A stretch of DNA of 24,316 nt. Source: a virus. The DNA is taken from the IMG/VR virus record IMGVR_UViG_3300044825_001298, positions 1 through 24,316 of that record; one strand, written 5' to 3'. Below, in pieces: positions 4,981 through 21,716 of the stretch (positions are counted from its first letter, which is position 1; every line of letters starts with the position of its first letter). The position numbers were made by a program, and so were the translations under genes. The notes beneath the pieces were generated by a model, which was not told the origin of the DNA, searched no databases, and saw nothing but the letters and a program-made list of their open reading frames with translations.

Positions 4981-6291
4981 ATGATCAAGCGACTCCGTGC
5001 GCTCCAGCAGCGCAAGGCCGCGGCCGTCGAAACCATGAAGACGATCACGGCATCCATCCCCGAGGGCCAAGACCTGAGCGCCGAGCAGGCGCTGCAGTTT
5101 GCGGCAGCCCAGGCCGACGCCACCGCGGCGCAGGCCAGCATCGAGCAGGTGCAGGCCGCCATCGAGGCCGAGCGCTCGCTTGAGCTGCCGGCTGGCGCGC
5201 GCATCGAGAACGTCGGCCCGCAGGCAGCCAACGACCCGACACGCGGCTTCGCGCACTTCGGCCAGTACCTGGCTGCTGTGCGTAGCGCCGCGCTGCGCCC
5301 CAACGCGGTCGATGAGCGGTTGCGCATCGACGCGGCGGCCACCACCTACGCCAACGAGACCACCGGCGCCGACGGCGGCTTCTTGGTCCCGCCGCAGTAC
5401 AGCAGCGAGATCATGTCGCTGATCGAAGGGCAGGATACGCTTCTCTCGCGCGTGCGCAACATCCCGGTCACCGGCAGCGAGTTCAAGTTCCCGGCCTCCG
5501 AGAAGACCGCGCACGGCACCACGGGCATCCAGGCGTACTGGGACAGCGAAGGCGACACCATCACGCCCACCAAGCCGGTGTTCAAGAACGGCAGCATCAA
5601 GCTGGACCGCCTGACCGCGCTTGCCCCCGTGACCGAGGAAGCCCTCGAGGACTCGTCGGCCCTCGGCGCCTGGGTGCAGATGGAAGCCAGCGAGACCATG
5701 GCGTTCAAGATCACCGACGCCATCTTCGCCGGCACTGGCGGCGGCATGCCGCTGGGCATCCTGAATGCGCCGTGCACCATCACGGTCAGCAAGGAGTCCA
5801 GCCAGGTTGCGGCCACCATCGTTGCCGAGAACGTGCTGAAGATGAAGGCCCGCATGCCGATGCGCAACTTCGCGCGCTCGGTGTGGCTTGCCCACTCGGA
5901 CACTGAGATCCAGCTGGCGCAGATGAACTTCAAGGTGAAGAACGTGGCCGGCAGCGAGAACGTCGGCGGCGTGCCGGTGTTCTACCCGCCCAGCGGTCTG
6001 AGCACCACGCCCTACAGCACGCTGCTGGGCCGGCCGATCCTGTTCATCGAGAGCGCCTCGGCGCTGGGCACCGCGGGCGACCTGGTGTTGGCCGATCTGT
6101 CGCAGTACATCGCCATCACCAAGGGCGGCGTCAAGGCGGATCAGTCGATGCACTTCTACTTCGACCAGAACGTGCGCGCCTTCCGCTTCGTGTTCCGCAT
6201 GGGCGGCCAGCCGTGGCTGTCTTCGGCAATCAGCCGCAAGAACGGCAGCAGCACGCTCAGCCACTTCGTCAGCCTGCAGACCCGCAGCTGA
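4981..6291 (+). CDS. Major capsid protein, HK97 fold
   Basis: Building block of the icosahedral head. The 436-residue product has an N-terminal helical, Ala/Gln/Glu-rich region (residues 1 to about 67), matching the delta (scaffold) domain of HK97-type capsid proteins that the protease upstream removes. A linker with PTRGFAHFGQYLAAV follows, then the characteristic core start GGFLVPPQYSSEIM at residue 132. Downstream are VTGSEFKFP, TALAPVTEEALEDSS, and toward the end GRPILFIESA, LADLSQYIAITKGG and QNVRAFRFVFRMGGQPW, all typical of this fold. The cleavage point is not certain from sequence alone. Gene order protease-capsid is normal. Confidence 0.95.
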   Translation: MIKRLRALQQRKAAAVETMKTITASIPEGQDLSAEQALQFAAAQADATAAQASIEQVQAAIEAERSLELPAGARIENVGPQAANDPTRGFAHFGQYLAAVRSAALRPNAVDERLRIDAAATTYANETTGADGGFLVPPQYSSEIMSLIEGQDTLLSRVRNIPVTGSEFKFPASEKTAHGTTGIQAYWDSEGDTITPTKPVFKNGSIKLDRLTALAPVTEEALEDSSALGAWVQMEASETMAFKITDAIFAGTGGGMPLGILNAPCTITVSKESSQVAATIVAENVLKMKARMPMRNFARSVWLAHSDTEIQLAQMNFKVKNVAGSENVGGVPVFYPPSGLSTTPYSTLLGRPILFIESASALGTAGDLVLADLSQYIAITKGGVKADQSMHFYFDQNVRAFRFVFRMGGQPWLSSAISRKNGSSTLSHFVSLQTRS

Positions 6292-6825: not shown

Positions 6826-6863
6826 TCCTCGCCCGCTGGCGATGCCAGCGGCTGAGACATCAA

Positions 6864-6894
6864 GCGCCGCCCTCACCGGGCGGCGTTTTCGTTT
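6864..6894 (+). terminator. Intrinsic terminator after the head genes
   Basis: CGCCGCCC (6865-6872), a TCACC loop and GGGCGGCG (6878-6885) form a perfect 8-bp all-GC stem, followed directly by TTTTCGTTT. This has the form of a Rho-independent terminator. It lies 39 bases after the stop at 6825 and 24 bases before the next gene, with no obvious promoter between them. The genes downstream therefore depend on read-through, antitermination or an unseen promoter. Confidence 0.85.
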
Positions 6895-6917: not shown

Positions 6918-7343
6918 ATGGCCACCTACACCAAGTTCCTTGACTACGTGGAGCAGCTCAACAAGGCTGTTCACAACTGGTCCAGCCACACGATCAAGGC
7001 GGCGTTGACCAACACGGCGCCGGTAAACACCAACACGGTGTTCGCCAACCTCACCGAGATCAGCGCCGGCAATGGCTACAGCGCGGGCGGCATGACGCTC
7101 GACACCGTGACGCTGAGCGAGACCAGCGGCACGGCCAAGGTGACCATTGCCGACGAGGTGCTCACGGCCAGCGGCGGCTCCATCGGGCCGCTGCGCTACG
7201 TCAGCATCTACAACGACACGCCCACCAGCCCGGCCGATCCGCTGGTCGCGTTCTACGACTACGGCAGCAGCATCACGCTCGCGGCCGGCGAGTCGTTCAC
7301 CGTCGACTTCGACGCCACCAACGGCCTCTGGCAGCTGGCCTGA
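6918..7343 (+). CDS. Putative phage structural protein, unknown family
   Basis: A 141-residue protein opening MATYTKFLDYVEQLNKAVHNW, a short helical segment, followed by Thr/Ser/Gly-rich sequence that looks beta-stranded (YSAGGMTLDTVTLSETSGTA, then PLRYVSIYNDTPTSPADPLV). It ends in FTVDFDATNGLWQLA. I recall this general type as an uncharacterised protein in siphovirus structural modules, often near decoration or fibre genes, but cannot give it a function. The leader CAGGACACCACCC before ATG 6918 resembles that of the tube protein gene, hinting at high expression. It opens a cassette that separates capsid and connector genes. Confidence 0.6.
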   Translation: MATYTKFLDYVEQLNKAVHNWSSHTIKAALTNTAPVNTNTVFANLTEISAGNGYSAGGMTLDTVTLSETSGTAKVTIADEVLTASGGSIGPLRYVSIYNDTPTSPADPLVAFYDYGSSITLAAGESFTVDFDATNGLWQLA

Positions 7344-7347
7344 CGCC

Positions 7348-7590
7348 ATGAGCTACGGCGCCATCTCCATGCGCGTGCGCGGCAAGACCGTGGCCGACGT
7401 GCTCACCAACGGCCACGAGCTGCGCATTGCGTGCACCGACGGCAGCGAGGTCAGCGTGGTCTGGCTTGACGACAACGGCGCGCCGCTGAAGGGCAAACCG
7501 GCCATCGTTCAGCACGGCGCGCGGCTGCTGGCCCGCGGCGTCGATGAGCTTATCCACTATCCCGCAATCCGAGAGCGAGGGCACGCATGA
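7348..7590 (+). CDS. Small conserved-looking phage protein
   Basis: An 80-residue protein from ATG 7348, four bases after the previous stop. The sequence MSYGAISMRVRGKTVADVLT..GHELRI.CTDGSEVSVVWLDDNG suggests a small mixed alpha/beta domain with several strands. It ends in HYPAIRERGHA, and its stop overlaps the next ATG by four bases (ATGA at 7587), which supports it as part of a coupled gene string. No family is recognised and no membrane or signal segment is present. The frame is open further upstream over the previous gene; that part is ignored. Confidence 0.6.
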   Translation: MSYGAISMRVRGKTVADVLTNGHELRIACTDGSEVSVVWLDDNGAPLKGKPAIVQHGARLLARGVDELIHYPAIRERGHA

Positions 7591-7832
7591 GCAGCCTGGA
7601 AACCCAATACGACGAGCTCTGCGCAAAGCGCGATCACGTCAACGCCCTCAATGCGCCCCTCGAGGCCGAGTTGGCCCGGGTGTGTGCCGAGGGCGAAGCG
7701 CTGCGCATCCGCGCGGCCGAGATCGCTGCGCAGATCGACGACAACCGCGGGCGCGAGGCCTGGCTGGCGCTCAAGCGCGACATCCGCATCCTGGCGCCGG
7801 CCATCGAGCGCGCACGCGCGGCGGGGAGGTAG
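7587..7832 (+). CDS. Small coiled-coil protein
   Basis: An 81-residue protein, almost wholly helical and charged (Glu/Arg/Ala-rich). Heptad-like spacing is seen from LNAPLEAELARVCAEGEAL through IRAAEIAAQIDDNRGREAW, so a coiled coil or helical bundle is likely. It overlaps the preceding gene by four bases (ATGA). Its TAG stop lies against the strong Shine-Dalgarno of the micro-ORF that follows. Small coiled-coil proteins next to fibre genes can be assembly factors, but this is a guess. I know no named family for it. Confidence 0.6.
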   Translation: MSSLETQYDELCAKRDHVNALNAPLEAELARVCAEGEALRIRAAEIAAQIDDNRGREAWLALKRDIRILAPAIERARAAGR

Positions 7833-7834
7833 CC

Positions 7835-7873
7835 ATGTGGGAACTCTGGAAGCGCATCATCGTCGGGGCCTGA
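7835..7873 (+). CDS. 12-codon micro-ORF (possible leader peptide)
   Basis: ATG 7835 encodes MWELWKRIIVGA and then stops at TGA, followed at once by an in-frame TAG and, in the same frame, the ATG of the fibre-like gene. GGAGGT at 7825-7830 is a near-perfect Shine-Dalgarno, 4 bases upstream, and is the strongest in the window. The peptide has two Trp and alternates hydrophobic and charged residues, as an amphipathic helix would. It could be a small protein in its own right or a ribosome-loading leader that couples translation of the 7877 gene, whose ATG is only 3 bases after the TGA. Confidence 0.45.
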   Translation: MWELWKRIIVGA

Positions 7874-7876
7874 TAG

Positions 7877-8965
7877 ATGCCCACTCACGCTAACCGCGTG
7901 TCTATGTCGGTGTCTGGCACGCCAGGCACCGGCACGATTACGCTCGGCTCTGCGCAGTCTGGATACCAGTCGCTGGCGTCAGCCTACGGCGCCAATGCGA
8001 CGGTCGATGTCGTCATCACCGACGGCACGGCGTGGGAGGTCGCGCGCAACTGCACCTACACGCACTCCGGGACGACGCTCAGTCGCGGCACGCTGGAGGC
8101 GAGCAGCACCGGCAGCGCGCTGAGTCTGACCAGTGCGGCGGTTGTGAGCGTGACGCTGACGGCCGACCGCGCTCGCGCCCACGACGCAGCGGCCCTCGAA
8201 TACCTCGCCGGCACGGACGCTGACACCACGATGGTGGTCAATCGGCTGTACGTGGTCGATATGTCGGCTTGGGCCACGGCCAATCGCACCTACACGCTGC
8301 CGGCAACCGCAGCAGTGGGCGACCGCATCGGCATCATGGTGACCAGCGGCAACGCATCCTATGAACTACTGATCACCGCAGGCACAGGCGACACGCTCAA
8401 CGGCGTGGCTGGTGGCACCGAGTGGAGCCGACTGTTCATCACCAATGAGGTGGTGATCATGCGGTGTGTGGTGGCGAACTCGACGTGGCTGGTCGAACAA
8501 GACGGCCGCGTGCCACAGTTTTGCTTGATGCGGTTGTCAACTTCGACGACTGGCAACGAGGCGGCCAGCACCTGGACCAGCCCGACCTCGATCAGCGGGG
8601 CGTGGACTGCGGATGCCGACAACGCATCGCTGGCATCGACTGCCAATAACCGCTTCAAGGTGCGGCGCGCGGGCAACTACCTGCTGTCGGCCGCTGGCCG
8701 CTCCGTCAGTTCGCAGAATGATCAGGAGCTTTTTGGCGTCGTGCTGTGGAAAAACGGCACCAGCACGCTGATCGGCACGAACCAGGGGCGGGTGTCCGGC
8801 ACGGGCAACTTCTACTATGCCGTGTGGCCCGGCGCCTCCAGTGGCATTCCGTTGGCTGCCGGCGATACGGTCAACTACCAGTTCCAGACCAGCAACGGCT
8901 CGCGCAACCTGTTCGCCTCCGGCTACAACTCGTTTTTCTCTGGCGCTGAGGTGCTTGCGCGATGA
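7877..8965 (+). CDS. Fibre-like structural protein with jelly-roll C-terminus
   Basis: A 362-residue protein. Residues about 5-95 (ANRVSMSVSGTPGTGTITL, GYQSLASAYG, VVITDGTAWEVA, TLSRGTLEASS) match an N-terminal module I know from many phage fibre-like or minor structural proteins, probably an attachment domain. The middle (about 115-205) is a beta-rich module with TYTLPATAAVGDRIGIMV. From about residue 213 (TSTTGNEAASTWTSPTSISG, RFKVRRAGNYLLSAAGRS, GVVLWKNGT, PLAAGDTVNYQFQTSNG) it resembles a C1q/TNF-like jelly roll, often used for trimerisation or receptor binding. Lying between capsid and connector genes, it may be a head fibre rather than a tail fibre. Confidence 0.75.
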   Translation: MPTHANRVSMSVSGTPGTGTITLGSAQSGYQSLASAYGANATVDVVITDGTAWEVARNCTYTHSGTTLSRGTLEASSTGSALSLTSAAVVSVTLTADRARAHDAAALEYLAGTDADTTMVVNRLYVVDMSAWATANRTYTLPATAAVGDRIGIMVTSGNASYELLITAGTGDTLNGVAGGTEWSRLFITNEVVIMRCVVANSTWLVEQDGRVPQFCLMRLSTSTTGNEAASTWTSPTSISGAWTADADNASLASTANNRFKVRRAGNYLLSAAGRSVSSQNDQELFGVVLWKNGTSTLIGTNQGRVSGTGNFYYAVWPGASSGIPLAAGDTVNYQFQTSNGSRNLFASGYNSFFSGAEVLAR

Positions 8966-9369
8966 GCACGTACACGCGCATCGATGCGGCTGGCGCACTG
9001 CAGCATCTGGGCTATCGCCCTGGCCTTGACTTTGACGCCAGCGCGCGGGATGGCGCCATCTACGTGCTATGGCACCGCGAGGACTCGCCGACCGATGAGC
9101 AAGTGGCGGCGGTGTCTGCGGCCGATGCGGCGCGCGCGTTCATCGCACCCGTCACCCGTCGCCAGATGCTCACCGCGCTGCACCGTGCTGGCCTGCTGAC
9201 GACCATCAAAGCGGCAGTAGCTGCGTCGGGCGATCCCGAGCTGCAGATCGCTTTCGACGAGTCGCAAGAGTTTCAGCGCAACAACCCATTCCTGGCAACG
9301 ATGGCCGCAGCCCTCGGCAAGACGCCCGCCGAGGTGGATGCGATCTTTGCACTGGCGCGGACGCTGTAA
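8962..9369 (+). CDS. Fibre-associated small protein (possible assembly factor)
   Basis: A 135-residue protein overlapping the fibre-like gene by four bases (ATGA), so the two are coupled. The N-terminal half has a small alpha/beta look (GYRPGLDFDASARDGAIYVLW). The C-terminal half is helical: RRQMLTALHRAGLLTTIKAA, then FDESQEFQRNNPFLATMAAALG and AEVDAIFALA. I recognise this C-terminal pattern (R..ALL.AGL ... W/F..S.EF.R..P....L...LG) from small proteins encoded next to phage fibre genes. Their exact function is not settled; a chaperone or fibre-linked role is the usual guess. Confidence 0.7.
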   Translation: MSTYTRIDAAGALQHLGYRPGLDFDASARDGAIYVLWHREDSPTDEQVAAVSAADAARAFIAPVTRRQMLTALHRAGLLTTIKAAVAASGDPELQIAFDESQEFQRNNPFLATMAAALGKTPAEVDAIFALARTL

Positions 9370-9372
9370 GCC

Positions 9373-10035
9373 ATGACCTTCGCGCTGGGTCCGTGGGCTG
9401 ACGGGCCGATTGCGGACGGGCCGGAGGCGGCTGGCGCCGCCTCCTACACCCTCACCGCCAGCTCCGGCACCTACACCCTCACCGGCCAGGCCGCTGCCCT
9501 CACCGCCACCCGCGCCATCACCGCCGAACAGGGCACCTACACCCTCACCGGCCAGTCTGCCGGCCTGCTGGCCAGCTACTCCCTGCCTGCCGCACAGGGC
9601 AGCTACAGCCTGAGCGGCCAGGATGCCACGCTGACCTACACGCCAGCCGGCGCATACAGCCTCACCGCAGACTCTGGCACGTACACACTGACCGGCCAGG
9701 ATGCCGCGCTGCTGGCCCTGCGCGCGCTGAGCGCCGAACAGGGCACTTACACCCTGACTGGCCAAGATGCCACGCTGGCCCGGCAGTTCACCGTCACCGC
9801 GGACAGCGGCACCTACTCCCTCACCGGCCAGGCCGCCACGCTCACCCGCACGATCATCATGACCGCCGACGGCGGCACCTATGTGCTCACCGGCCAGGCG
9901 GCCACGCTGACGTACAGCGGCGAAGCGGTGGCGGCGCAACTCTCAGCCGCCCCCATCGGCCACGGCCCCGCGCTGGGCATGCGCAGCCTGCAGCTCGGGC
10001 GGCGAATGGCCAACATCAGCAGGCGCACACGATGA
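9373..10035 (+). CDS. Tandem-repeat structural protein with seven GTYxLTGQ repeats
   Basis: A 220-residue protein starting three bases after the previous stop. After a Gly/Ala-rich head (GPWADGPIADGPEAAG) it consists of seven repeats of about 21-26 residues (residues 23-182), each with the core G(T/S)YxL(T/S)GQxAxL. The spacers alternate between (L/I)TADSG-like and (I/L)SAEQG-like forms. The repeats probably make short beta hairpins. A 38-residue basic tail (GMRSLQLGRRMANISRRTR at its end) follows. It is a likely minor virion or fibre component of the cassette. Its stop overlaps the connector ATG by four bases. The repeat type is familiar from phage genomes, but I know no proven function. Confidence 0.65.
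   Translation: MTFALGPWADGPIADGPEAAGAASYTLTASSGTYTLTGQAAALTATRAITAEQGTYTLTGQSAGLLASYSLPAAQGSYSLSGQDATLTYTPAGAYSLTADSGTYTLTGQDAALLALRALSAEQGTYTLTGQDATLARQFTVTADSGTYSLTGQAATLTRTIIMTADGGTYVLTGQAATLTYSGEAVAAQLSAAPIGHGPALGMRSLQLGRRMANISRRTR
9439..9918 (+). repeat. Seven tandem degenerate coding repeats
   Basis: DNA counterpart of the seven protein repeats, about 63-78 bp each. The best conserved stretch is the block encoding GTYTLTGQ, such as GGCACCTACACCCTCACCGG in units 1 and 2; other units differ mainly at third codon positions. Such arrays can change copy number by recombination. It is not a CRISPR: the repeats are contiguous, coding and lack unique spacers. Confidence 0.8.
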
Positions 10036-11923: not shown

Positions 11924-12565
11924 ATGACCACCATCGTCGGGCGCAACGTCAAAGTCGAGGTCGCGCTCACCTTCGCATCCGCCGTGTCGCCTACTGCTTG
12001 CACCAAGGCAAACCCGGCCGTCGGCACGCTGACCAGCCACACGTTGTCTGACAACGACGTGGGCTACTGGACCGTGACCAGCGGCATGGTCGAGCTCGAC
12101 GGCCAGGCCGTGCACATCATGGACACGTCGGCCAACACGTTCACCATGAACGGCCTGGACACGACGCAATACTCGACGTACGCCTCGGGCACGCTCACGC
12201 CGGCCAGCACGTGGGGCACGCTGAGCGAGGCCGCCAGCTACGCCGTGGGCGGTGGCGCTGCCAATGCGCTGGACGACACGCGGCTGCTGGACGTCAAGAC
12301 CCGCAACGTGGCCGGCCTGCTGGCGCCGCAAGACATCACCATCGACGTGCGCAACGGCGTGGCACACGGCGCGGCCATGGCCTTCATCGAGGCGGCGGCG
12401 CGCAACAGCACCAGCTGCTTGTTCCGCATCAGCCAGGGCCCCACCGTGCTGCGCGTGTACTACGGCGTGCCCTCGGTGCCGGGCGAAAGTCTGCAGGCCG
12501 GCGCGCTGGCCACCGGCCAGTTCAACGTGCTCGGCGCGGGCTGGGCCGTGAAGCCGAATCTGTGA
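11924..12565 (+). CDS. Tail tube (major tail) protein
   Basis: A 213-residue protein in the tube position, between tail completion and assembly chaperone genes. It starts MTTIVGRNVKVEVALTFASA and is mostly beta. A central insert of small polar residues (YWTVTSGMVELDGQAVHIMD, NTFTMNGLDTTQYSTYASG) resembles a small Ig-like or hairpin module. The C-terminal part (QDITIDVRNGVAHGAAMAFIEAAA, TVLRVYYGVPSVPGES, ATGQFNVLGAGWAVKPN) matches the form of lambda gpV / phage tail tube proteins. The strong leader agrees with a protein needed in many copies. The assignment uses gene order and fold pattern, not a full alignment. Confidence 0.82.
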   Translation: MTTIVGRNVKVEVALTFASAVSPTACTKANPAVGTLTSHTLSDNDVGYWTVTSGMVELDGQAVHIMDTSANTFTMNGLDTTQYSTYASGTLTPASTWGTLSEAASYAVGGGAANALDDTRLLDVKTRNVAGLLAPQDITIDVRNGVAHGAAMAFIEAAARNSTSCLFRISQGPTVLRVYYGVPSVPGESLQAGALATGQFNVLGAGWAVKPNL

Positions 12566-12927
12566 GCACCACCGCAGCCGACTACATCGCGCGCATCTGG
12601 CAGGCGCGCGAGTCGTGGTGCGATCTGGCGCCCGGCAAGCGCGTCAAGGTGCGGCGCCCTGGCGAGCTGGCCATGCGCCAGCTCGCCGGTGGTGGCGCCA
12701 CGCTCGAGAAGCTGTGCAGCTGCGTGGTGGCATGGGACGGCATCACCGAGGGCGACCTGTTCGACGGCGGCAGCGAGAACTACGTGCCGTTCGATGCGGG
12801 CGTGTGGGCTGAGGCTGTTGCCGATCAAGCCGAGTGGGCCGCGCTGGTGGCTGCACACGTCACGCAGCTCATCACCGAGCACATGGCCAAGCGCGAGGCC
12901 ACACGGGGAAACTCTCAGCCCTCCTAG
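12562..12927 (+). CDS. Tail assembly chaperone, short form (G-like)
   Basis: A 121-residue protein starting at GTG 12562, which overlaps the tube stop in GTGA. Helical and polar, it opens STTAADYIARIWQARESWCDL and contains VKVRRPGELAMRQLAGGGAT. With lambda gpG it shares position, size and a slippery sequence near its 3' end, not obvious sequence identity. Gp G-type chaperones coat the tape measure during tail assembly and recruit tube protein. The stop (TAG 12925) lies 13 bases after the slippery GGGAAAC. An in-frame ATG at 12673 is possible, but the GTGA overlap and the length favour GTG. Confidence 0.8.
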   Translation: MSTTAADYIARIWQARESWCDLAPGKRVKVRRPGELAMRQLAGGGATLEKLCSCVVAWDGITEGDLFDGGSENYVPFDAGVWAEAVADQAEWAALVAAHVTQLITEHMAKREATRGNSQPS

Positions 12928-13148
12928 ATGTCGCGGCCGGCATCCAGTATGAGGGCGGACCACCACAGGCCAGCAACGACGAGCGTGCAGCGGTGCAGAT
13001 CTGGAACGCTTGCGCCAACGGCATGGGCGGCATCGACTGGCAGGCCGTGCCGCTGTTCGCTGAGTTCTACGGCTTTGCCGACCTGGACGCGCTCACCGAG
13101 CAGCTGCTGATCATCAAGATGCACAAGCCCGACACCACGGGGAGCTGA
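12562..13148 (+). CDS. Tail assembly chaperone, frameshifted long form (GT-like)
   Basis: Product of a -1 ribosomal frameshift at GGGAAAC (12906-12912): 117 residues of the short form joined to 78 residues read in the -1 frame (join 12562..12912, 12912..13148), 195 in all. The added part begins LSALLDVAAGIQYEGG and ends in WQAVPLFAEFYGFADLDALTEQLLIIKMH, resembling the DUF1799-type segment usually encoded just before the tape measure. No good start codon or Shine-Dalgarno serves that part alone, and it sits where the T domain lies in lambda. The long form would bridge the tape measure and tube protein. Frameshifting is well established in such pairs; here it is predicted from the sequence. Confidence 0.82.
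12906..12912 (+). promoter_or_regulatory. -1 frameshift slippery heptamer GGGAAAC
   Basis: In the zero frame the bases read G GGA AAC, fitting X XXY YYZ. After slipping back one base the codons are GGG and AAA. The lambda G-T site is GGGAAAG, so only the last base differs. The zero-frame stop follows 13 bases later, and the -1 frame stays open for 78 further codons up to just before the tape measure gene. Confidence 0.85.
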
Positions 13149-16546: not shown

Positions 16547-16986
16547 ACGTGCCGCGCGTTGCCGTGGTGGCCGAGGCGCGGCGCTGGCTGGACACCCCAT
16601 TCCACCACCAGGCCCGCACGCGCGGCGTGGGCTGCGATTGCGGTGGCTTGGTGGGCGGTGTGGCGGTTGCGCTCGGCATCGTCCCGCCCGACTGGTGGCG
16701 CGATACCTTTGATCCGCGCTGGGGCGGCTACGGCCGGCAGCCGGCGCAGGGCACGCTGCAGCAGGTGTGCGAGTCTTTCATGGCCCGCACCGATGATCCG
16801 CAGCCCGGCGACGTGCTGCTGATGCGCTTTGCGCGCGAGCCGCAGCATGTGGCCATCGTCGGCGACCACGGCGGGCGCTCGCTCATCCATGCCTACGAGG
16901 CCATCGGCCGCGTGATCGAGCACCGGCTGGACACGCGCTGGCAACGGCGCACGGTGCAGGCGTACCGGATGCCGGGGGTGCACTGA
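16543..16986 (+). CDS. NlpC/P60 cysteine peptidase of the tail tip (GTA g14-like)
   Basis: A 147-residue peptidoglycan peptidase that probably opens the cell wall during DNA entry. The nucleophile is C33 in the GVGCDCGGLVGG motif. H102 in PQHVAIVGD is the expected catalytic His and H116 in SLIHAYE the likely third residue. This matches the phage NlpC/P60 family (NLPC_P60 putative phage cell wall peptidase), and its place after DUF2163 is the GTA g13-g14 order. It begins at GTG 16543, overlapping the preceding stop by four bases. The stop shares one base with the next ATG (TGATG). It has no signal peptide. Confidence 0.93.
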   Translation: MNVPRVAVVAEARRWLDTPFHHQARTRGVGCDCGGLVGGVAVALGIVPPDWWRDTFDPRWGGYGRQPAQGTLQQVCESFMARTDDPQPGDVLLMRFAREPQHVAIVGDHGGRSLIHAYEAIGRVIEHRLDTRWQRRTVQAYRMPGVH

Positions 16987-19238
16987 TGGCACAGCTCGCA
17001 GTCGCATTCGCTGGCGCTGCGCTCGGCGCGGCCACGCTCGGCACCGCACCGGTGCTGTTCGGCATGACCGGCTCGGCGATTGGCTTCGCGGCCGGCAGCA
17101 TCATCGGCGGCGCAATCGCGCCGCCGCGCATGCATGGGCCGCGCGTCGAGGATCTCAAGGTCCAGATCAGCAGCTACGGTGCGCCGCTGTCCAAAACGTA
17201 TGGCACCGACCGCGTGGCCGGCGTGCTCATCTGGGCGGCCGACTTCGTGGAGACCGCGCACAAGCAAGGCGGCAAGGGTGGCCCGAAGGTCACCACGTAC
17301 AGCTACACCTGCTCTTTCGCGGTGGCCATCGGTGAGGGCGAGGTCGGCGCCGTGCGGCGCATCTGGGCCGACTCCAAACTGGTCTATGACGCGCGCGTCG
17401 GTGGCGAAGATCCCATCGCCGTCCAAAACGCCAAGTTCCGCCAGTACTGGACGCTGTACCCGGGCAGCGAGACCCAGGAGCCCGACGCAACGATTGAAGC
17501 GGTGGAGGGCGCCGGCAACGTCGAGGCGTACCGCGGCACCTGCTACATGGTGTTCACCAACCTCCCGCTGGGCGACTACGGCAACCGCATTCCGTCGTTC
17601 AGCTTCGAGCTGACGCAGGAGACGGAAGACACCACGCCGACGGCCGACATCCTCGAGCCGCTCAAGGTGTACCCCTGGGTCTACAACGCCCAAAGCATGC
17701 CGGAGCACGGCATTGGCGATACCTACTACGAGCCCATCACAGTCGGCAGCGTGTCGGCCGGAACCGGGTTCGGCACGATGGCGGTGGCACAGGCTGATGC
17801 CTACGAGGCGTCCAGCACGCTCACGCGGCCAGGCGCCGCCAAGGGTGCGTACAACTTCACCGGATACTTCTGGAGCCACTTCAGCAACGCCTCGCCCTAT
17901 GCAACGCTGAACAAGCTGTACATGAACGGAGGATCGAACGACGACCCCGAGTTCGTCAGCGTGCTCCATAGCTACTACAGCCTGAAACTGGTCGATGTGC
18001 CCTATGGCGCGGCGCCTGTGAAGGACGTCGTTGCGCTCAACGAGTTTGCGGCCACCACGCCGTTCTACGACAGGCGGTTGAGCTGGCCGCACTATGGCGT
18101 GGCGGGCTACACCTACGACGCGCCCGTCATCGTGCGCCGCGAGATCGGCAACAGTGGGCCCCAGCCGGGCGAGTACACGGTCGTGAACTCGGCCGTCTAT
18201 GACACCTACCCCGCAGGCGATATCAGCTACGTCAGCCACGCGCTCGAACTCAAGGGAAGCCGCGTGCCGACGCACCCGCTCAAGACGTGCTACGCCGCCG
18301 ACAGCGAGCGCAACCAGCAGATCGCGCAAATCCTGGGCATGGCTGAGGCGCCAAGCGACAACGAGTGGTGCGTGACCTTCGACGGCCAGGTGGTGCCCAA
18401 TCGCAACTGGACTATCGTGACCGGCACCGCCAAGCAGCTGGCCGGCGTCGAGTATCGCAGTGGAGCGCTCTACCAAAACGCGCTCGGCCCCGTGCTGCTG
18501 CCGGGCGATCCCAACTACAACAACACGGCGTATTGGGACGCGGCCCGCGATGCCGCCATTGCTGCGGGCACGCTGCAGGACGGCGCCACCACGCCCGTCG
18601 TGGTCACCAGCTGGGCCGAGAGCGACGGCGGGCCGGATGTCACCAGCGTGCAGGATGGCACCGTCCTGCTGAGCACCATCGTGACGGACATCTGCGAAGC
18701 CGCGGGCCTGAGCGCCAGCGACATCGACGTCACCGAGCTGACCGATGAGGTCATCGGCTACAGCCGCGCCAGCCGCATGGCGGCACGGCAGGCCATTGAG
18801 CCCCTGCGGCTCTGCTACCAGTTCGATGGCGTGGAGAGCGACGGCAAGATCGCCTGGCGCAAGCGCGTGCGCAGCAGCGTGGCCACGCTCACCGTCAATG
18901 ACCTGGGCGCGCAGGTGGACGAGGCTGCCGAGCACGCCATGCATCATGAGCGCGGCCAGGAGCAGGAGCTGCCGCGCGCAGTGACGGTGCTCTACCGCAG
19001 CTATGCGCTCGACTACGCCGTAGGCGCGCAGGAAGCGCGGCGCCAGGGCGGCGAGACCGACCAGCTCGCCACCGTCGAGGTGCCCGTCGTGCTGACGGAC
19101 GACCACGCGCGGCAGCTGGCCGACGTCATCCTCTATGGCGGCTGGGTGGCGCGCAACGTGCGCAGCTTCACCACCACGCTGGCATGGGCGCACCTCGAGC
19201 CTACCGACGTTGTGACGGTGAGCGATGACGACCTATAG
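16986..19238 (+). CDS. Tail hub/baseplate protein, N-terminal part (GTA g15-like)
   Basis: A 750-residue large tail tip protein. Residues 1-45 are a Gly/Ala-rich hydrophobic zipper (ALGAATLGTAPVLFGMTGSA). A region of the form YSYTCSFAVAIGEGEVGAVR, RIWADSKLVYDARV and LPLGDYGNRIPSFSFE then follows, typical of phage tail proteins of the GTA g15 / lambda J group. Later segments are STIVTDICEAAGLSASDID, ASRMAARQAIEPLRLCYQFD and VTVLYRSYALDYAVGAQEA. The family's TIM-barrel is not recognisable. It ends at TAG 19236 inside what looks like a continuing domain: the next frame begins MTTYSLRLLDKTEDGGVITW, which normally follows the VVTVSDD strand in the same polypeptide. The gene therefore looks split. 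Confidence 0.88.
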   Translation: MAQLAVAFAGAALGAATLGTAPVLFGMTGSAIGFAAGSIIGGAIAPPRMHGPRVEDLKVQISSYGAPLSKTYGTDRVAGVLIWAADFVETAHKQGGKGGPKVTTYSYTCSFAVAIGEGEVGAVRRIWADSKLVYDARVGGEDPIAVQNAKFRQYWTLYPGSETQEPDATIEAVEGAGNVEAYRGTCYMVFTNLPLGDYGNRIPSFSFELTQETEDTTPTADILEPLKVYPWVYNAQSMPEHGIGDTYYEPITVGSVSAGTGFGTMAVAQADAYEASSTLTRPGAAKGAYNFTGYFWSHFSNASPYATLNKLYMNGGSNDDPEFVSVLHSYYSLKLVDVPYGAAPVKDVVALNEFAATTPFYDRRLSWPHYGVAGYTYDAPVIVRREIGNSGPQPGEYTVVNSAVYDTYPAGDISYVSHALELKGSRVPTHPLKTCYAADSERNQQIAQILGMAEAPSDNEWCVTFDGQVVPNRNWTIVTGTAKQLAGVEYRSGALYQNALGPVLLPGDPNYNNTAYWDAARDAAIAAGTLQDGATTPVVVTSWAESDGGPDVTSVQDGTVLLSTIVTDICEAAGLSASDIDVTELTDEVIGYSRASRMAARQAIEPLRLCYQFDGVESDGKIAWRKRVRSSVATLTVNDLGAQVDEAAEHAMHHERGQEQELPRAVTVLYRSYALDYAVGAQEARRQGGETDQLATVEVPVVLTDDHARQLADVILYGGWVARNVRSFTTTLAWAHLEPTDVVTVSDDDL

Positions 19239-20280
19239 CCTGCGCCTGCTGGACAAGACCGAAGACGGCGGCGTCATCACCTGGCGCGCGGCCGACTACG
19301 ATGGCAGCGTGCTCGCCAGCACGGCCGACGGCGCTGCAGGCCCGGTGCCCGGCAGCATGGCCGGCGTCACGGTGCTGCAGTTCGAGGCGATGGACATCCC
19401 CCTGCTATCGCAGGACGACGACGCTCCAGGCATCTACGTCGCGGCGGCAACGATGATCGGCACATGGCGCGGCGCCGTGGTCTACCGCAGCCGCGACGGC
19501 GGCACCACCTACACCGAGGCGGCGCAACTCAATGCGGCGGCAACGCTTGGCCGGTGCGAGTCGGTGCTCGGTGACTGGGACGGCGGCAATCAGATTGACG
19601 TGAGCAGCTGGGTTGACGTAGTGGTTTCCGGCGAGCTGGAGACCATCACCGCCGCGGCGCTGCTGGAGGGCGGCAATCGTGCGCTCATCGGTGACGAGGT
19701 GGTGCACTTCAAGCGCGCCACGCTGCTGAGCGCCGGCCGCTACCGCCTGAGCGGATTCCTGCGCGGCCGTCTCGGCACCGAAGACGCGCAGGCCACGCAC
19801 ACCGAGACCGACCGTTTCGTGCTGCTCGACGAGGCCGTCATTCGCCTGCCCGAGCAACTGAGCGACCGCGGCAAGGCGATGCGATACCGCTGCGTGGCAC
19901 TTGGAGACCAGGTGACGCAGGGGCCGGTGCAGACCGTAAACCCCCTGCGCTTCGTCAGCCTGTTGCCACTCGCGCCGATCAATCTCAACGTCGCGCCGAT
20001 TGCGGGCGGCGGCCAGTCCGTGCGATGGACGCGGCGCACGCGCTACGCGGCACCGCTGACCGACGGCGCCGACGCACCGCTCGGCGAGGCCAGCGAGCGC
20101 TACAGCCTGCGCATCGTGCAGACCGGACTCGGTGGCGTTGCCGACGCCGTGCTCGACACCGAGGCCACAACCAACAGCTACACCATGGCCGACGGCTACG
20201 AGGAGCGCGTGCTGCAGGTGGCGCAGATCAGCGCCACGGTCGGCAACGGCACCGCCGCGCGCATCACCACAGGAGCCTGA
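19225..20280 (+). CDS. Tail hub/baseplate protein, C-terminal part (separate frame)
   Basis: A 351-residue frame that overlaps the preceding gene by 14 bases and reads in the +1 frame. It continues the homologous hub protein: YSLRLLDKTEDGGVITWRAA, FEAMDIPLLSQDDDAPGIYVAAA, GAVVYRSRDGGTTYTEAAQL, then HFKRATLLSAGRYRLSGFLRG and TDRFVLLDEAVIRLPEQ. It ends in Ig-like strands (ERYSLRIVQTGLGGV, NSYTMADGYEERV). GGTGAG just before ATG 19225 is a weak Shine-Dalgarno, so it could be made as a separate chain. Otherwise one extra or two missing bases near 19230 break a single gene of about 1,100 codons. Confidence 0.82.
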   Translation: MTTYSLRLLDKTEDGGVITWRAADYDGSVLASTADGAAGPVPGSMAGVTVLQFEAMDIPLLSQDDDAPGIYVAAATMIGTWRGAVVYRSRDGGTTYTEAAQLNAAATLGRCESVLGDWDGGNQIDVSSWVDVVVSGELETITAAALLEGGNRALIGDEVVHFKRATLLSAGRYRLSGFLRGRLGTEDAQATHTETDRFVLLDEAVIRLPEQLSDRGKAMRYRCVALGDQVTQGPVQTVNPLRFVSLLPLAPINLNVAPIAGGGQSVRWTRRTRYAAPLTDGADAPLGEASERYSLRIVQTGLGGVADAVLDTEATTNSYTMADGYEERVLQVAQISATVGNGTAARITTGA

Positions 20281-20285
20281 CCGAC

Positions 20286-21716
20286 ATGGCCAACAGCACC
20301 ACGCACCTGGACAGCATCAGCGCGAGCCAGGCGCAAAAAGAGGCGGCCATCAATGGCCTGTTTGACGCGGGCTCGCCTGCGCTGACATTCGGGCGCCGGC
20401 AGACGACCACCGATCAGCTCGTCTGGGGCTACTACGGCGGCCCGGTCAACGGCACCAACGTCGCCGACGGCACCGTGACGCTCACGGCCAGCCGCACGAA
20501 CTACATCGTGGTGCACCTGAGCACGTTTGTCGTCAGCACCAGCACCAGCGCGGCCAACTGGTGCACCCCGCAGACTTACGCGCGGCTGTACAAGGTGACG
20601 TGTGGCACGCTCACGCCCAGCAGCTGGGAAGACTGGCGCTTCGCACAGCTTGGCATTTGGGGCCGGTTGTTCGGCACCGCCGAGTGTGCGCGCGTCGAGT
20701 ACCGGCTGCCGGTGAGCGCGGACCTGAGCACCAGCATCACCACGGGCACCGACAAAGCCTACATGCGCGCGCCGTGCGCGATGCTGCTGACCGACGTTCG
20801 CGCCTCGCTGTACGGCGAGAGCACCAGCGGCACGGTCACCATCGACATCAACGACGCCGGGCAGACCATCCTCGGCGACAAGCTCACCATCGACGCCAAC
20901 GAAAAGACCAGCACCACGGCGGCGGCGGCGTTCGCGTTCAGCGAGGGCGGCGCAGTCATCGCTGACGATGCGCTGCTTACGGTTGACATCGACGGCGCCG
21001 GCACCAGCGCCGAGGGCCTGGCCATCACGCTGATCGGCCTGCGCGGCGTGGGCGATCCCGGCCGCGACTTGATCGTCAGCAGCGTGACGATGGAGGCAGA
21101 CCCATGGGTTGATTCGAACACCGCCATCACCTGGACCAAGACCAGCACGCCGACGGCCAGCAGCGCTCAGGCCGTGAGCAGCGTCAGTGCCAGCTACGCG
21201 ACCACCAGCACGCTGTTCGACGGCTCGGTGGAGCGCTACACCAGCAACGCGAGCAGCGTCTTTGACCTGGCCACGGCGCCGTGGGCGTTTGACTTGTGGG
21301 TCTACACCACCAGCACCAGCAGCAGCCCGCACATCTGCGAGATTGCGGTATCCAGCACCATGCGGCTGTCGCTGTACCTCAACACGGGCGCGCTCACGGT
21401 CTACAGCCAGACCACGGCCGGCAACGGGGCAGACCGCATCACTGGATCGGCCATCAGCACCGGCACCTGGTATCACGTCCGTGTGAGCTATGACCTGACC
21501 ACGCTGCGGCTTTTCCAGGACGGCGCTGTAGTCGGCACAGCGGCAACCAGCATCCTGCCAACCGGCAATGCTGCTGTCGCGCTCGGCAACCTCGAGCTCG
21601 GCGCCACGCCGGGCAGCAGCTACGCATGGCCGGGGCACATGCAGCGCTGGCGGTTCACGCGCGGATGGGCGCGTCAAACCGCGGCGTTTGCGCGGCCGCT
21701 CAAGCCCTGGGCCTGA
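20286..21716 (+). CDS. Tail fibre / receptor-binding protein with LamG-like C-terminus
   Basis: A 476-residue protein from ATG 20286 (AGGAG at 20270-20274 is its ribosome site). The N-terminal NSTTHLDSISASQAQKEAAI with GLFDAGSPALTFGRR is the attachment motif of many phage tail fibres (DUF2793-like N-terminus). A beta-rich middle (about residues 175-265) includes DVRASLYGESTSGTVTIDIN and ALLTVDIDGAGTSAEGLAIT. The C-terminal region, about 310-470, looks like a concanavalin/LamG jelly roll: AFDLWVYTTS, GTWYHVRVSYDLTTLRLFQD and GAVVGTA, and the final GHMQRWRFTRGWARQTAAF. The C-terminal domain probably binds a host surface sugar. It directly follows the hub genes. Confidence 0.86.
   Translation: MANSTTHLDSISASQAQKEAAINGLFDAGSPALTFGRRQTTTDQLVWGYYGGPVNGTNVADGTVTLTASRTNYIVVHLSTFVVSTSTSAANWCTPQTYARLYKVTCGTLTPSSWEDWRFAQLGIWGRLFGTAECARVEYRLPVSADLSTSITTGTDKAYMRAPCAMLLTDVRASLYGESTSGTVTIDINDAGQTILGDKLTIDANEKTSTTAAAAFAFSEGGAVIADDALLTVDIDGAGTSAEGLAITLIGLRGVGDPGRDLIVSSVTMEADPWVDSNTAITWTKTSTPTASSAQAVSSVSASYATTSTLFDGSVERYTSNASSVFDLATAPWAFDLWVYTTSTSSSPHICEIAVSSTMRLSLYLNTGALTVYSQTTAGNGADRITGSAISTGTWYHVRVSYDLTTLRLFQDGAVVGTAATSILPTGNAAVALGNLELGATPGSSYAWPGHMQRWRFTRGWARQTAAFARPLKPWA

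What the first reader, a model, noticed from the sequence alone, without database searches (positions are those of the whole stretch)
6918..10035. 3.1-kb accessory cassette between capsid and connector genes
In HK97-type genomes the connector gene usually follows the capsid region closely. Here six genes intervene: unknown structural-like proteins, a coiled-coil protein, a fibre-like protein with a C1q/TNF-like end, a linked helical protein and a seven-repeat protein. The block starts right after an intrinsic terminator and ends in an ATGA overlap with the connector. The position suggests head-associated fibres or decorations rather than tail fibres, and the tail fibre at 20286 already exists. 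This could be a head-display module that adheres to mucus, surfaces or hosts. The gene contents are seen; the head location is inference.
Basis: partly seen in the sequence, partly recalled or inferred. Interest (0 to 1): 0.6.

Follow-up and report, generated by a model that had tools for sequence, protein, structure and literature searches.

The report
Mobile fibre cassette beside neck genes
Between its capsid and neck genes this phage carries a six-gene kit that very probably builds an extra sticky fibre, and the same kit, with a swappable tip, recurs at many different places in the genomes of otherwise unrelated phages, so its position here does not prove that the fibre sits on the head.

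Summary
The block is real and as described: six genes (A-F) between an intrinsic terminator and an ATGA overlap with the connector. It is best read as a mobile accessory-fibre cassette. A (6918-7343) folds confidently (pLDDT 95.5). Its best matches are T4-type gp7 baseplate domains (Z 12.6-13.1) and a chain of the GP4 'fiber I and fiber-tail-adaptor' entry (Z 9.1), so A is probably a fibre-docking adaptor. D's low-confidence model has a middle domain like T4 gp10/gp9 and tailspike anchors, and a TNF/C1q-like tip. In 78 loci found through D's N-terminal domain alone, A sits just upstream in 36. The cassette keeps its order but occupies at least six kinds of slot, from portal to lysis genes, in siphoviruses, podoviruses and a satellite phage (at least 10 slot changes on A's tree). 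A sister phage keeps A-B-C and F but has D and E replaced by other genes, including an alpha/beta-hydrolase. The head-display reading is therefore not supported by position. Repeats like F's are fused to a tail terminator in one phage group and to the tail tip in another. I favour a neck-mounted fibre, but location is unproven.

The parts
6862..6888 (+). Intrinsic terminator that separates the capsid genes from the cassette
   Evidence: Stem of 11 pairs, T-rich tail; z -6.4
6918..7343 (+). Gene A, 141 aa: predicted fibre-docking adaptor (phrog_644, unknown function)
   Evidence: AF2 pLDDT 95.5; Z 13.1/12.6 to T4-type gp7 domain, 9.1 to 8jou_a of GP4; 52 IMG/VR loci; directly upstream of D-type fibres in 36 of 78 loci
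7348..7590 (+). Gene B, 80 aa, unknown; next to A in six loci including the window
   Evidence: No Pfam hit, only weak PHROG hits; homologues near A in L005, L007, L016, L017, L018
7587..7832 (+). Gene C, 81 aa, predicted helical/coiled-coil; ATGA overlap with B
   Evidence: Cluster present in 24 loci, usually right after A; pN/pS about 0.04 against L005
7835..7873 (+). 12-codon ORF MWELWKRIIVGA with GGGGAGG upstream; sits at the left recombination junction
   Evidence: Elsewhere only in L005 and L058; window/L005 DNA homology ends at 7874, window/L058 homology starts at 7833
7877..8965 (+). Gene D, 362 aa: fibre. 1-~98 D-N domain; ~106-212 T4 gp10/gp9/tailspike-anchor-like domain; ~252-360 TNF/C1q-like tip
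   Evidence: D-N family tips include Peptidase_S74, YadA head, Collar
8962..9369 (+). Gene E, 135 aa, ATGA-coupled to D: candidate fibre chaperone
   Evidence: phrog_6034 5e-15 (unknown function); same slot holds DUF4376 (PF14301) in L058 and ESV2; E homologue near a tail-fibre gene in Caulobacter phage S2B
9373..10035 (+). Gene F, 220 aa, seven repeats with 22-26-residue spacing: candidate stalk or surface protein; ATGA overlap with the connector
   Evidence: F-type repeats fused to a tail terminator in L031/L033 (phrog_179 4e-11) and to the C-terminal part of the tail-tip protein in L036
10032..10616 (+). Head-tail connector (right boundary of the cassette)
   Evidence: phrog_442 1e-25, PF05135

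Best explanation
The block is a mobile accessory-fibre cassette. A is an adaptor with a T4 gp7-type fold that docks a fibre on the virion. D is that fibre, presumably trimeric: an N-terminal attachment part (D-N plus a gp10/gp9-like domain) and a TNF/C1q-like tip that binds the cell surface. E, co-translated with D, is probably its folding helper. C and F are probably a helical accessory and a repeat stalk or second surface protein. The D-E slot is exchanged by recombination between conserved flanks (the mini-ORF/D-N side and the start of F), which changes what the fibre binds or hydrolyses. The fibre adds to the LamG-tipped tail fibre at 20286. Shown here: gene order, recurrence, swapping, predicted folds. 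Inferred: assembly, trimerisation, binding. The place of mounting is inferred only weakly; my order is neck/connector (about 0.45), tail end (about 0.3), capsid shell (about 0.2).
For: A's model (pLDDT 95.5) matches T4-type gp7 (Z 13.1, 127 residues, rmsd 2.5; Z 12.6), a chain of the GP4 fibre I/fibre-tail-adaptor entry (Z 9.1), and small chains of the Bxb1 tail tip (8.3), Bas63 connector (7.2) and Sf14 neck (6.8). D residues 106-212 match gp10-type chains in the same two entries (9f4a, 5iv5), T4 gp9 and CBA120 TSP4 anchors (Z 10.8-13.5); 252-360 match TNF/C1q. A lies 9-57 bp upstream of D-N fibres in 36 of 78 loci sampled by D-N only. D-N fibres carry Peptidase_S74, YadA head and Collar domains and PHROG tail-fibre labels. 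DUF4376 occupies the E slot in L058 and ESV2. The sister phage L005 keeps A-C and F but has LamG-like, unknown and alpha/beta-hydrolase genes instead of D-E; a homologue of that hydrolase, ArV2 gp24, was found in virions by MS (PMC4205034). The A homologue of satellite MiniFlayer lies between MCP and head-tail adaptor, next to genes its authors propose as an adsorption module (PMC10690885). Slot changes: at least 10 on A's tree. Neck: F-type repeats fused to a tail terminator.
Against: No virion proteomics or microscopy exists for this phage. D's model is poor overall (pLDDT 57) and rests on eight sequences. Fold similarity does not prove function, and Foldseek alone gave no PDB match for A at E 0.001. 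42 of the 78 D-N loci have no A within 400 bp, so A is not always needed. E itself does not match DUF4376. The terminator fusion of F-type repeats is one phage group (L031-33, L050, near-identical).
Confidence: 0.72

Rival explanations
1. Head-display module: D/F decorate the capsid shell as head fibres that adhere to mucus, surfaces or hosts.
For: Gene position right after the capsid and 6322 genes; a slot after MCP or cement in several phage types; D's middle domain matches the Pa223 capsid spike (Z 9.1); F has a weak Hoc-like PHROG hit (E 0.029).
Against: The same cassette occurs after tail, lysis and portal genes, so position is not diagnostic; A's best folds are baseplate/neck fibre adaptors; terminator and tail-tip fusions of the repeats; no specific head-fibre family hit.
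Confidence: 0.18
2. Ordinary tail-end fibre: the cassette makes side or tip fibres of the tail, and its place among head genes is a mere accident of insertion.
For: In ESV2, L035-L039, Fryberger and GMA1 A lies among tail-tip or minor-tail genes; A and D resemble gp7/gp10 of T4-type baseplates; D-N proteins hit tail-fibre PHROGs.
Against: The cassette sits next to portal, capsid or connector genes in many of the classified loci, including short-tailed phages and satellite MiniFlayer; F-type repeats are also tethered to a tail terminator, i.e. the neck end.
Confidence: 0.28
3. Not virion proteins: a lysogenic-conversion or host-takeover cargo island inserted in the late operon.
For: Variable gene content and terminator in front; A, B, C, E have no annotated function.
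Against: ATGA overlap with the connector; fibre-type folds and domains; fusions of F-type repeats to virion proteins; virion detection of the ArV2 homologue of the sister's hydrolase.
Confidence: 0.04

Closest known systems
T4 gp7-gp10/gp9 fibre-docking complex of the baseplate
   Same: A has the fold of a gp7 domain (Z 12.6-13.1); D's middle domain resembles gp10 and gp9 (Z 10.8-12.2); A and D match chains of the same two entries, 9f4a and 5iv5.
   Different: Stand-alone 141-aa adaptor, no contractile tail genes seen in the window, tip of TNF/C1q type, sits in a mobile cassette. Sequence similarity is not detectable. That the matched chains are gp7 and gp10 is my inference from their lengths.
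GP4 fibre I / fibre-tail adaptor (PDB 8jou) and A-1(L) neck fibres
   Same: A matches chain a of 8jou (Z 9.1, 119 of 136 residues); an optional adhesin chain hung on the neck is the arrangement I favour (PMC10966104).
   Different: Which GP4 protein chain a is was not established here; A-1(L) neck gp5 appears helical and was not matched; ring formation by A is untested.
Putative adsorption module of satellite phage MiniFlayer
   Same: A homologue (gp6) right after MCP and before the head-tail adaptor, followed by a small gene, a 4.1-kb gene and a tail-fibre gene.
   Different: A is only 37% identical; no D-N domain was detected there; MiniFlayer fibres bind the neck of a helper phage.
LSH1 extra structural module gp34-36
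   Same: An optional accessory virion module with a predicted depolymerase/adhesin, a GP4-type fibril and an Ig-like protein, found in half of relatives and detected by MS (PMC13243795).
   Different: No sequence link to A-F was tested; located after the lysis genes.
DUF4376 (PF14301) proteins next to tail fibres
   Same: Occupies the E slot behind D-type fibres in L058 and ESV2.
   Different: E of the window does not match PF14301.

Membership tests
T4 gp7-type fibre/baseplate adaptor fold (protein A) | Fold over most of the domain | tested here: met
   Z 13.1 and 12.6, 126-127 of 141 residues, rmsd 2.5, well above unrelated rows
T4 gp7-type fibre/baseplate adaptor fold (protein A) | Detectable sequence homology | tested here: not met
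   Profile search of PDB sequences found only antibodies
T4 gp7-type fibre/baseplate adaptor fold (protein A) | Binds a gp10/gp9-type trimeric fibre base | not testable with these tools
   No complex prediction available; only gene linkage to D-N fibres and D's gp10/gp9-like domain
Phage fibre/tailspike (protein D) | Conserved N-terminal anchor with variable tips, tips of known fibre type | tested here: met
   D-N shared, tips differ: Peptidase_S74, YadA head, Collar, glycine-rich; middle domain like TSP4/gp10 anchors
TNF/C1q-type trimeric head (D tip) | Jelly-roll fold of residues 252-360 | tested here: inconclusive
   Z 8-9 to many TNF/C1q chains but model pLDDT about 50 there
DUF4376 tail-fibre-type protein (E) | PF14301 match | tested here: not met
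   E: no Pfam hit; L058 and ESV2 proteins in this slot do match
Hoc-like head decoration (F) | Hoc profile or Ig-like domains | tested here: not met
   phrog_4069 only at E 0.029 over the repeats; no Ig Pfam over cut-off
phi29-type head fibre | Pfam head-fibre domain | tested here: not met
   No such hit for any of the six proteins
Neck collar/whisker fibre | Physical location at the neck | not testable with these tools
   Only indirect: fold matches to neck chains, gene position, F-type repeat-terminator fusion in L031/L033

The most novel reading that the evidence does not exclude
A previously unnamed, widely exchanged fibre system of tailed phages: a small gp7-fold adaptor (phrog_644 family) plus interchangeable D-N fibres that can be fitted to virions of unrelated architecture (siphoviruses, P22- and T7-type podoviruses, satellite phages), probably at the neck, giving a phage a second, quickly replaceable set of receptor-binding or sugar-cleaving tools independent of its tail tip.
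Probability: 0.4. Interest if true: 0.75.

Novelty: new variant of a known kind. Interest (0 to 1): 0.55.

Why it matters
Protein A and its relatives (PHROG 644, 'unknown function') are common in environmental phages and lack an assigned role. A testable role as a fibre adaptor would annotate many genomes, mark the adjacent gene as a receptor-binding candidate even where it has no recognisable domain, and explain how phages of different build trade host-binding tools. The sister pair with a swapped D-E slot, and a different phage from the sister's metagenome sharing the junctions, show where such exchanges happen.

Tried and rejected
Megablast of 10 kb around the block against cultured phages: no match. 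tblastn of D against cultured phages: no match. PDB sequence searches with A, the 6322 protein and D: only chance hits. Foldseek of A against PDB: nothing below E 0.001, although VIA-align then found strong matches among its candidates. Connector search: only the sister and one distant contig, so an empty version of this exact slot in a close relative could not be shown. A single ORF joining head closure and the hydrolase, hinted at by phrog_10356, was not found. The GP4 genome accession I tried was not in the collection, so the protein behind chain 8jou_a was not identified. Considered and rejected: Hoc-like decoration, phi29-type head fibre, host-takeover cargo. The mini-ORF as a conserved peptide is undecided: three copies and no sign of purifying selection.
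Full report
What was checked. The window is an IMG/VR virus record of 24,316 bases with an HK97-type head module and a long-tailed phage's tail genes. The tool's terminator scan missed the stem, probably because the stem extends into the T-run, but folding gives -32.3 kcal/mol, z -6.4. Two more ATGA overlaps couple B to C and D to E. Comparison with the sister contig L005 shows purifying selection on A, B and C, and comparison with L058 shows it on D-N.

Does it move as a unit? Protein A was used to fetch 52 IMG/VR loci. Clustering all ORFs and comparing gene order shows A at the head of a recurrent set: A, often C (24 loci), fibre-type genes, and at the end F-type repeat proteins (36 loci including the window). 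The neighbours differ. With reference proteins for head, neck, tail and lysis genes the slots are: MCP to connector (window, L005, L006, L022/23, L026, L030, L041, L044; in some of these only one flank is on the contig); MCP or cement to adaptor or needle head in P22/Pam1-type podoviruses (L019, L020, L021, L040, L042, L043, L049); MCP to later tail genes in T7-type podoviruses (L004, L008-L010); right after portal (L012, L024, L027-L029, L053, L054); connector to tail tube (L031-L033, L050); after tail-tip genes (ESV2/L003, L035-L039); after lysis genes (L007). Cultured relatives agree: Pam1 gp9 behind the needle head, MiniFlayer gp6 between MCP and head-tail adaptor, Fryberger gp58 and GMA1 gp27 just before minor tail proteins, CRP-603 gp59 between coat and a tail fibre, a Manatee Spring podovirus with A two genes before a pectate lyase. 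On a tree of A the slots need at least 10 changes, against 25 for shuffled labels, and the MCP-to-connector label needs at least three changes on well-supported branches. Position therefore does not identify the place in the virion.

The A-fibre pair. The first ~95 residues of D (D-N) define a family. Of 78 with enough upstream sequence, 36 have A 9-57 bp upstream. Behind D-N the proteins differ completely: of 49 scanned, 5 have glycine-rich domains, 4 Peptidase_S74, 3 YadA heads, and single ones Collar and others; the most frequent PHROG labels are mostly tail fibre. Some D-N proteins stand alone at 110-123 residues.

Folds. A was modelled at pLDDT 95.5. VIA-align gives Z 13.1 and 12.6 to two T4-type baseplate chains of about 1,000 residues, which by length I take to be gp7, then Z 9.1 to chain a of the GP4 'fiber I and fiber-tail-adaptor' entry, 8.3 to a Bxb1 tail-tip chain, 7.2 and 6.8 to neck/connector chains of Bas63 and Sf14, 5.4 to a phi812 baseplate chain and 4.7 to phage 7-7-1 tail fibres; values under 8 may be common arrangements. 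In the viral library the closest are uncharacterised phage proteins, with many 'tail collar fiber' proteins at weaker E-values. D's model is poor overall (pLDDT 57), but its better part, 106-212, matches CBA120 TSP4 (Z 13.5), gp10-type chains of the same two baseplate entries (12.2, 10.8), T4 gp9 (10.8) and the Pa223 capsid spike (9.1); 252-360 matches TNF and C1q proteins (8-9). From established knowledge of T4, gp10 is carried by gp7 and gp9 connects the long tail fibres. That A and D resemble these partners is the main reason for the adaptor-plus-fibre reading.

E, C, F. E is ATGA-coupled to D. E itself has only unknown-function PHROG hits, but the gene in this slot in L058 and ESV2 is DUF4376, and an E homologue lies close behind a tail-fibre gene in Caulobacter phage S2B. 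F has seven repeats spaced 22-26 residues. In L031/L033 similar repeats join a LamG-like N-terminus (my reading of the sequence) to a C-terminal tail terminator (PF13554 2e-7; phrog_179 4e-11); in L036 they precede a LamG-like C-terminal domain of a tail-tip protein. Such repeats thus look like spacers between a virion anchor and a surface domain. C is conserved and probably helical; its role is open.

Swapping. Window and L005 are colinear to 7874, the end of the 12-codon ORF, and again from 9432 in F; in between L005 has a 233-aa LamG-like ORF, a ~250-aa ORF and an alpha/beta-hydrolase (LamG-like and hydrolase are my readings of the sequences, supported for the hydrolase by its annotated relatives). 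The hydrolase belongs to a family whose ArV2 member, gp24, was detected in virions (11 peptides, PMC4205034). L058, a contig with a P22-type coat gene by my reading and from the same metagenome as L005, shares with the window only 7833-8165 (mini-ORF plus D-N, 90%) and 9366-9439 (start of F, 93%). So exchange happens between these flanks, at domain borders.

Where is the fibre? Three locations remain. For the neck: the gene neighbourhood, A's matches to neck/connector chains, the terminator fusion, and precedents of optional neck fibres (A-1(L), PMC10966104; Sf14 whiskers, whose genes lie between portal and capsid, PMC11821841). For the tail end: the T4 baseplate folds and the tail-end slots. 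For the capsid: the slot after MCP and the Pa223 capsid-spike match. I rank them 0.45, 0.3 and 0.2.

Novelty. Accessory fibres, neck whiskers and modular fibre tips are known, and MiniFlayer's authors already proposed an adsorption module of a tail fibre and three hypothetical proteins at this place (PMC10690885). LSH1 has an optional three-gene virion module of similar logic (PMC13243795). What I did not find in the papers read is the assignment of the A family as a gp7-fold fibre adaptor or its spread as a linked cassette over unrelated phages. Hence 'new variant of a known kind'.

Noticed in passing
window 4981-6291 versus L005 5006-6325: The major capsid protein of the sister phage is only 60% identical while the protease and the 6322 protein on either side are 96-97%: the capsid gene itself has been swapped between otherwise near-identical phages.
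   Followed up: no
window 7835-7873: 12-codon ORF MWELWKRIIVGA* with a GGGGAGG ribosome-binding site, found elsewhere only in two IMG/VR contigs of one metagenome, exactly at the left edge of the swapped slot. Peptide or mere homology arm is undecided.
   Followed up: partly
L033 8213-10060 (also L031, L032, L050): A single 615-aa ORF joins a LamG-like part and F-type repeats to a tail terminator.
   Followed up: partly
L005 9514-10290 and PHROG 10356: PHROG 10356 (852 positions) matches the head-completion protein at its start and the sister's hydrolase at its end, hinting at a member that links a neck protein to the hydrolase family; no such ORF was found.
   Followed up: partly
window 16986-19238 and 19225-20280: The tail-tip (gpJ-like by position) region is split into two ORFs overlapping by 14 bases; frameshift, split gene or assembly error was not examined.
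   Followed up: no
window 12211-13148: Overlapping ORFs between the tail tube and tape measure, where tail assembly chaperones with programmed frameshifts usually lie.
   Followed up: no
L057 2-3899: D and E homologues followed by an unrelated repeat protein and a 562-aa GDSL/SGNH hydrolase (PF13472 8e-10), upstream of a capsid-like gene.
   Followed up: no
L058 2788-3336: Collagen-like Gly-X-Y protein directly upstream of the mini-ORF and D-N fibre in a contig with a P22-type coat gene.
   Followed up: no
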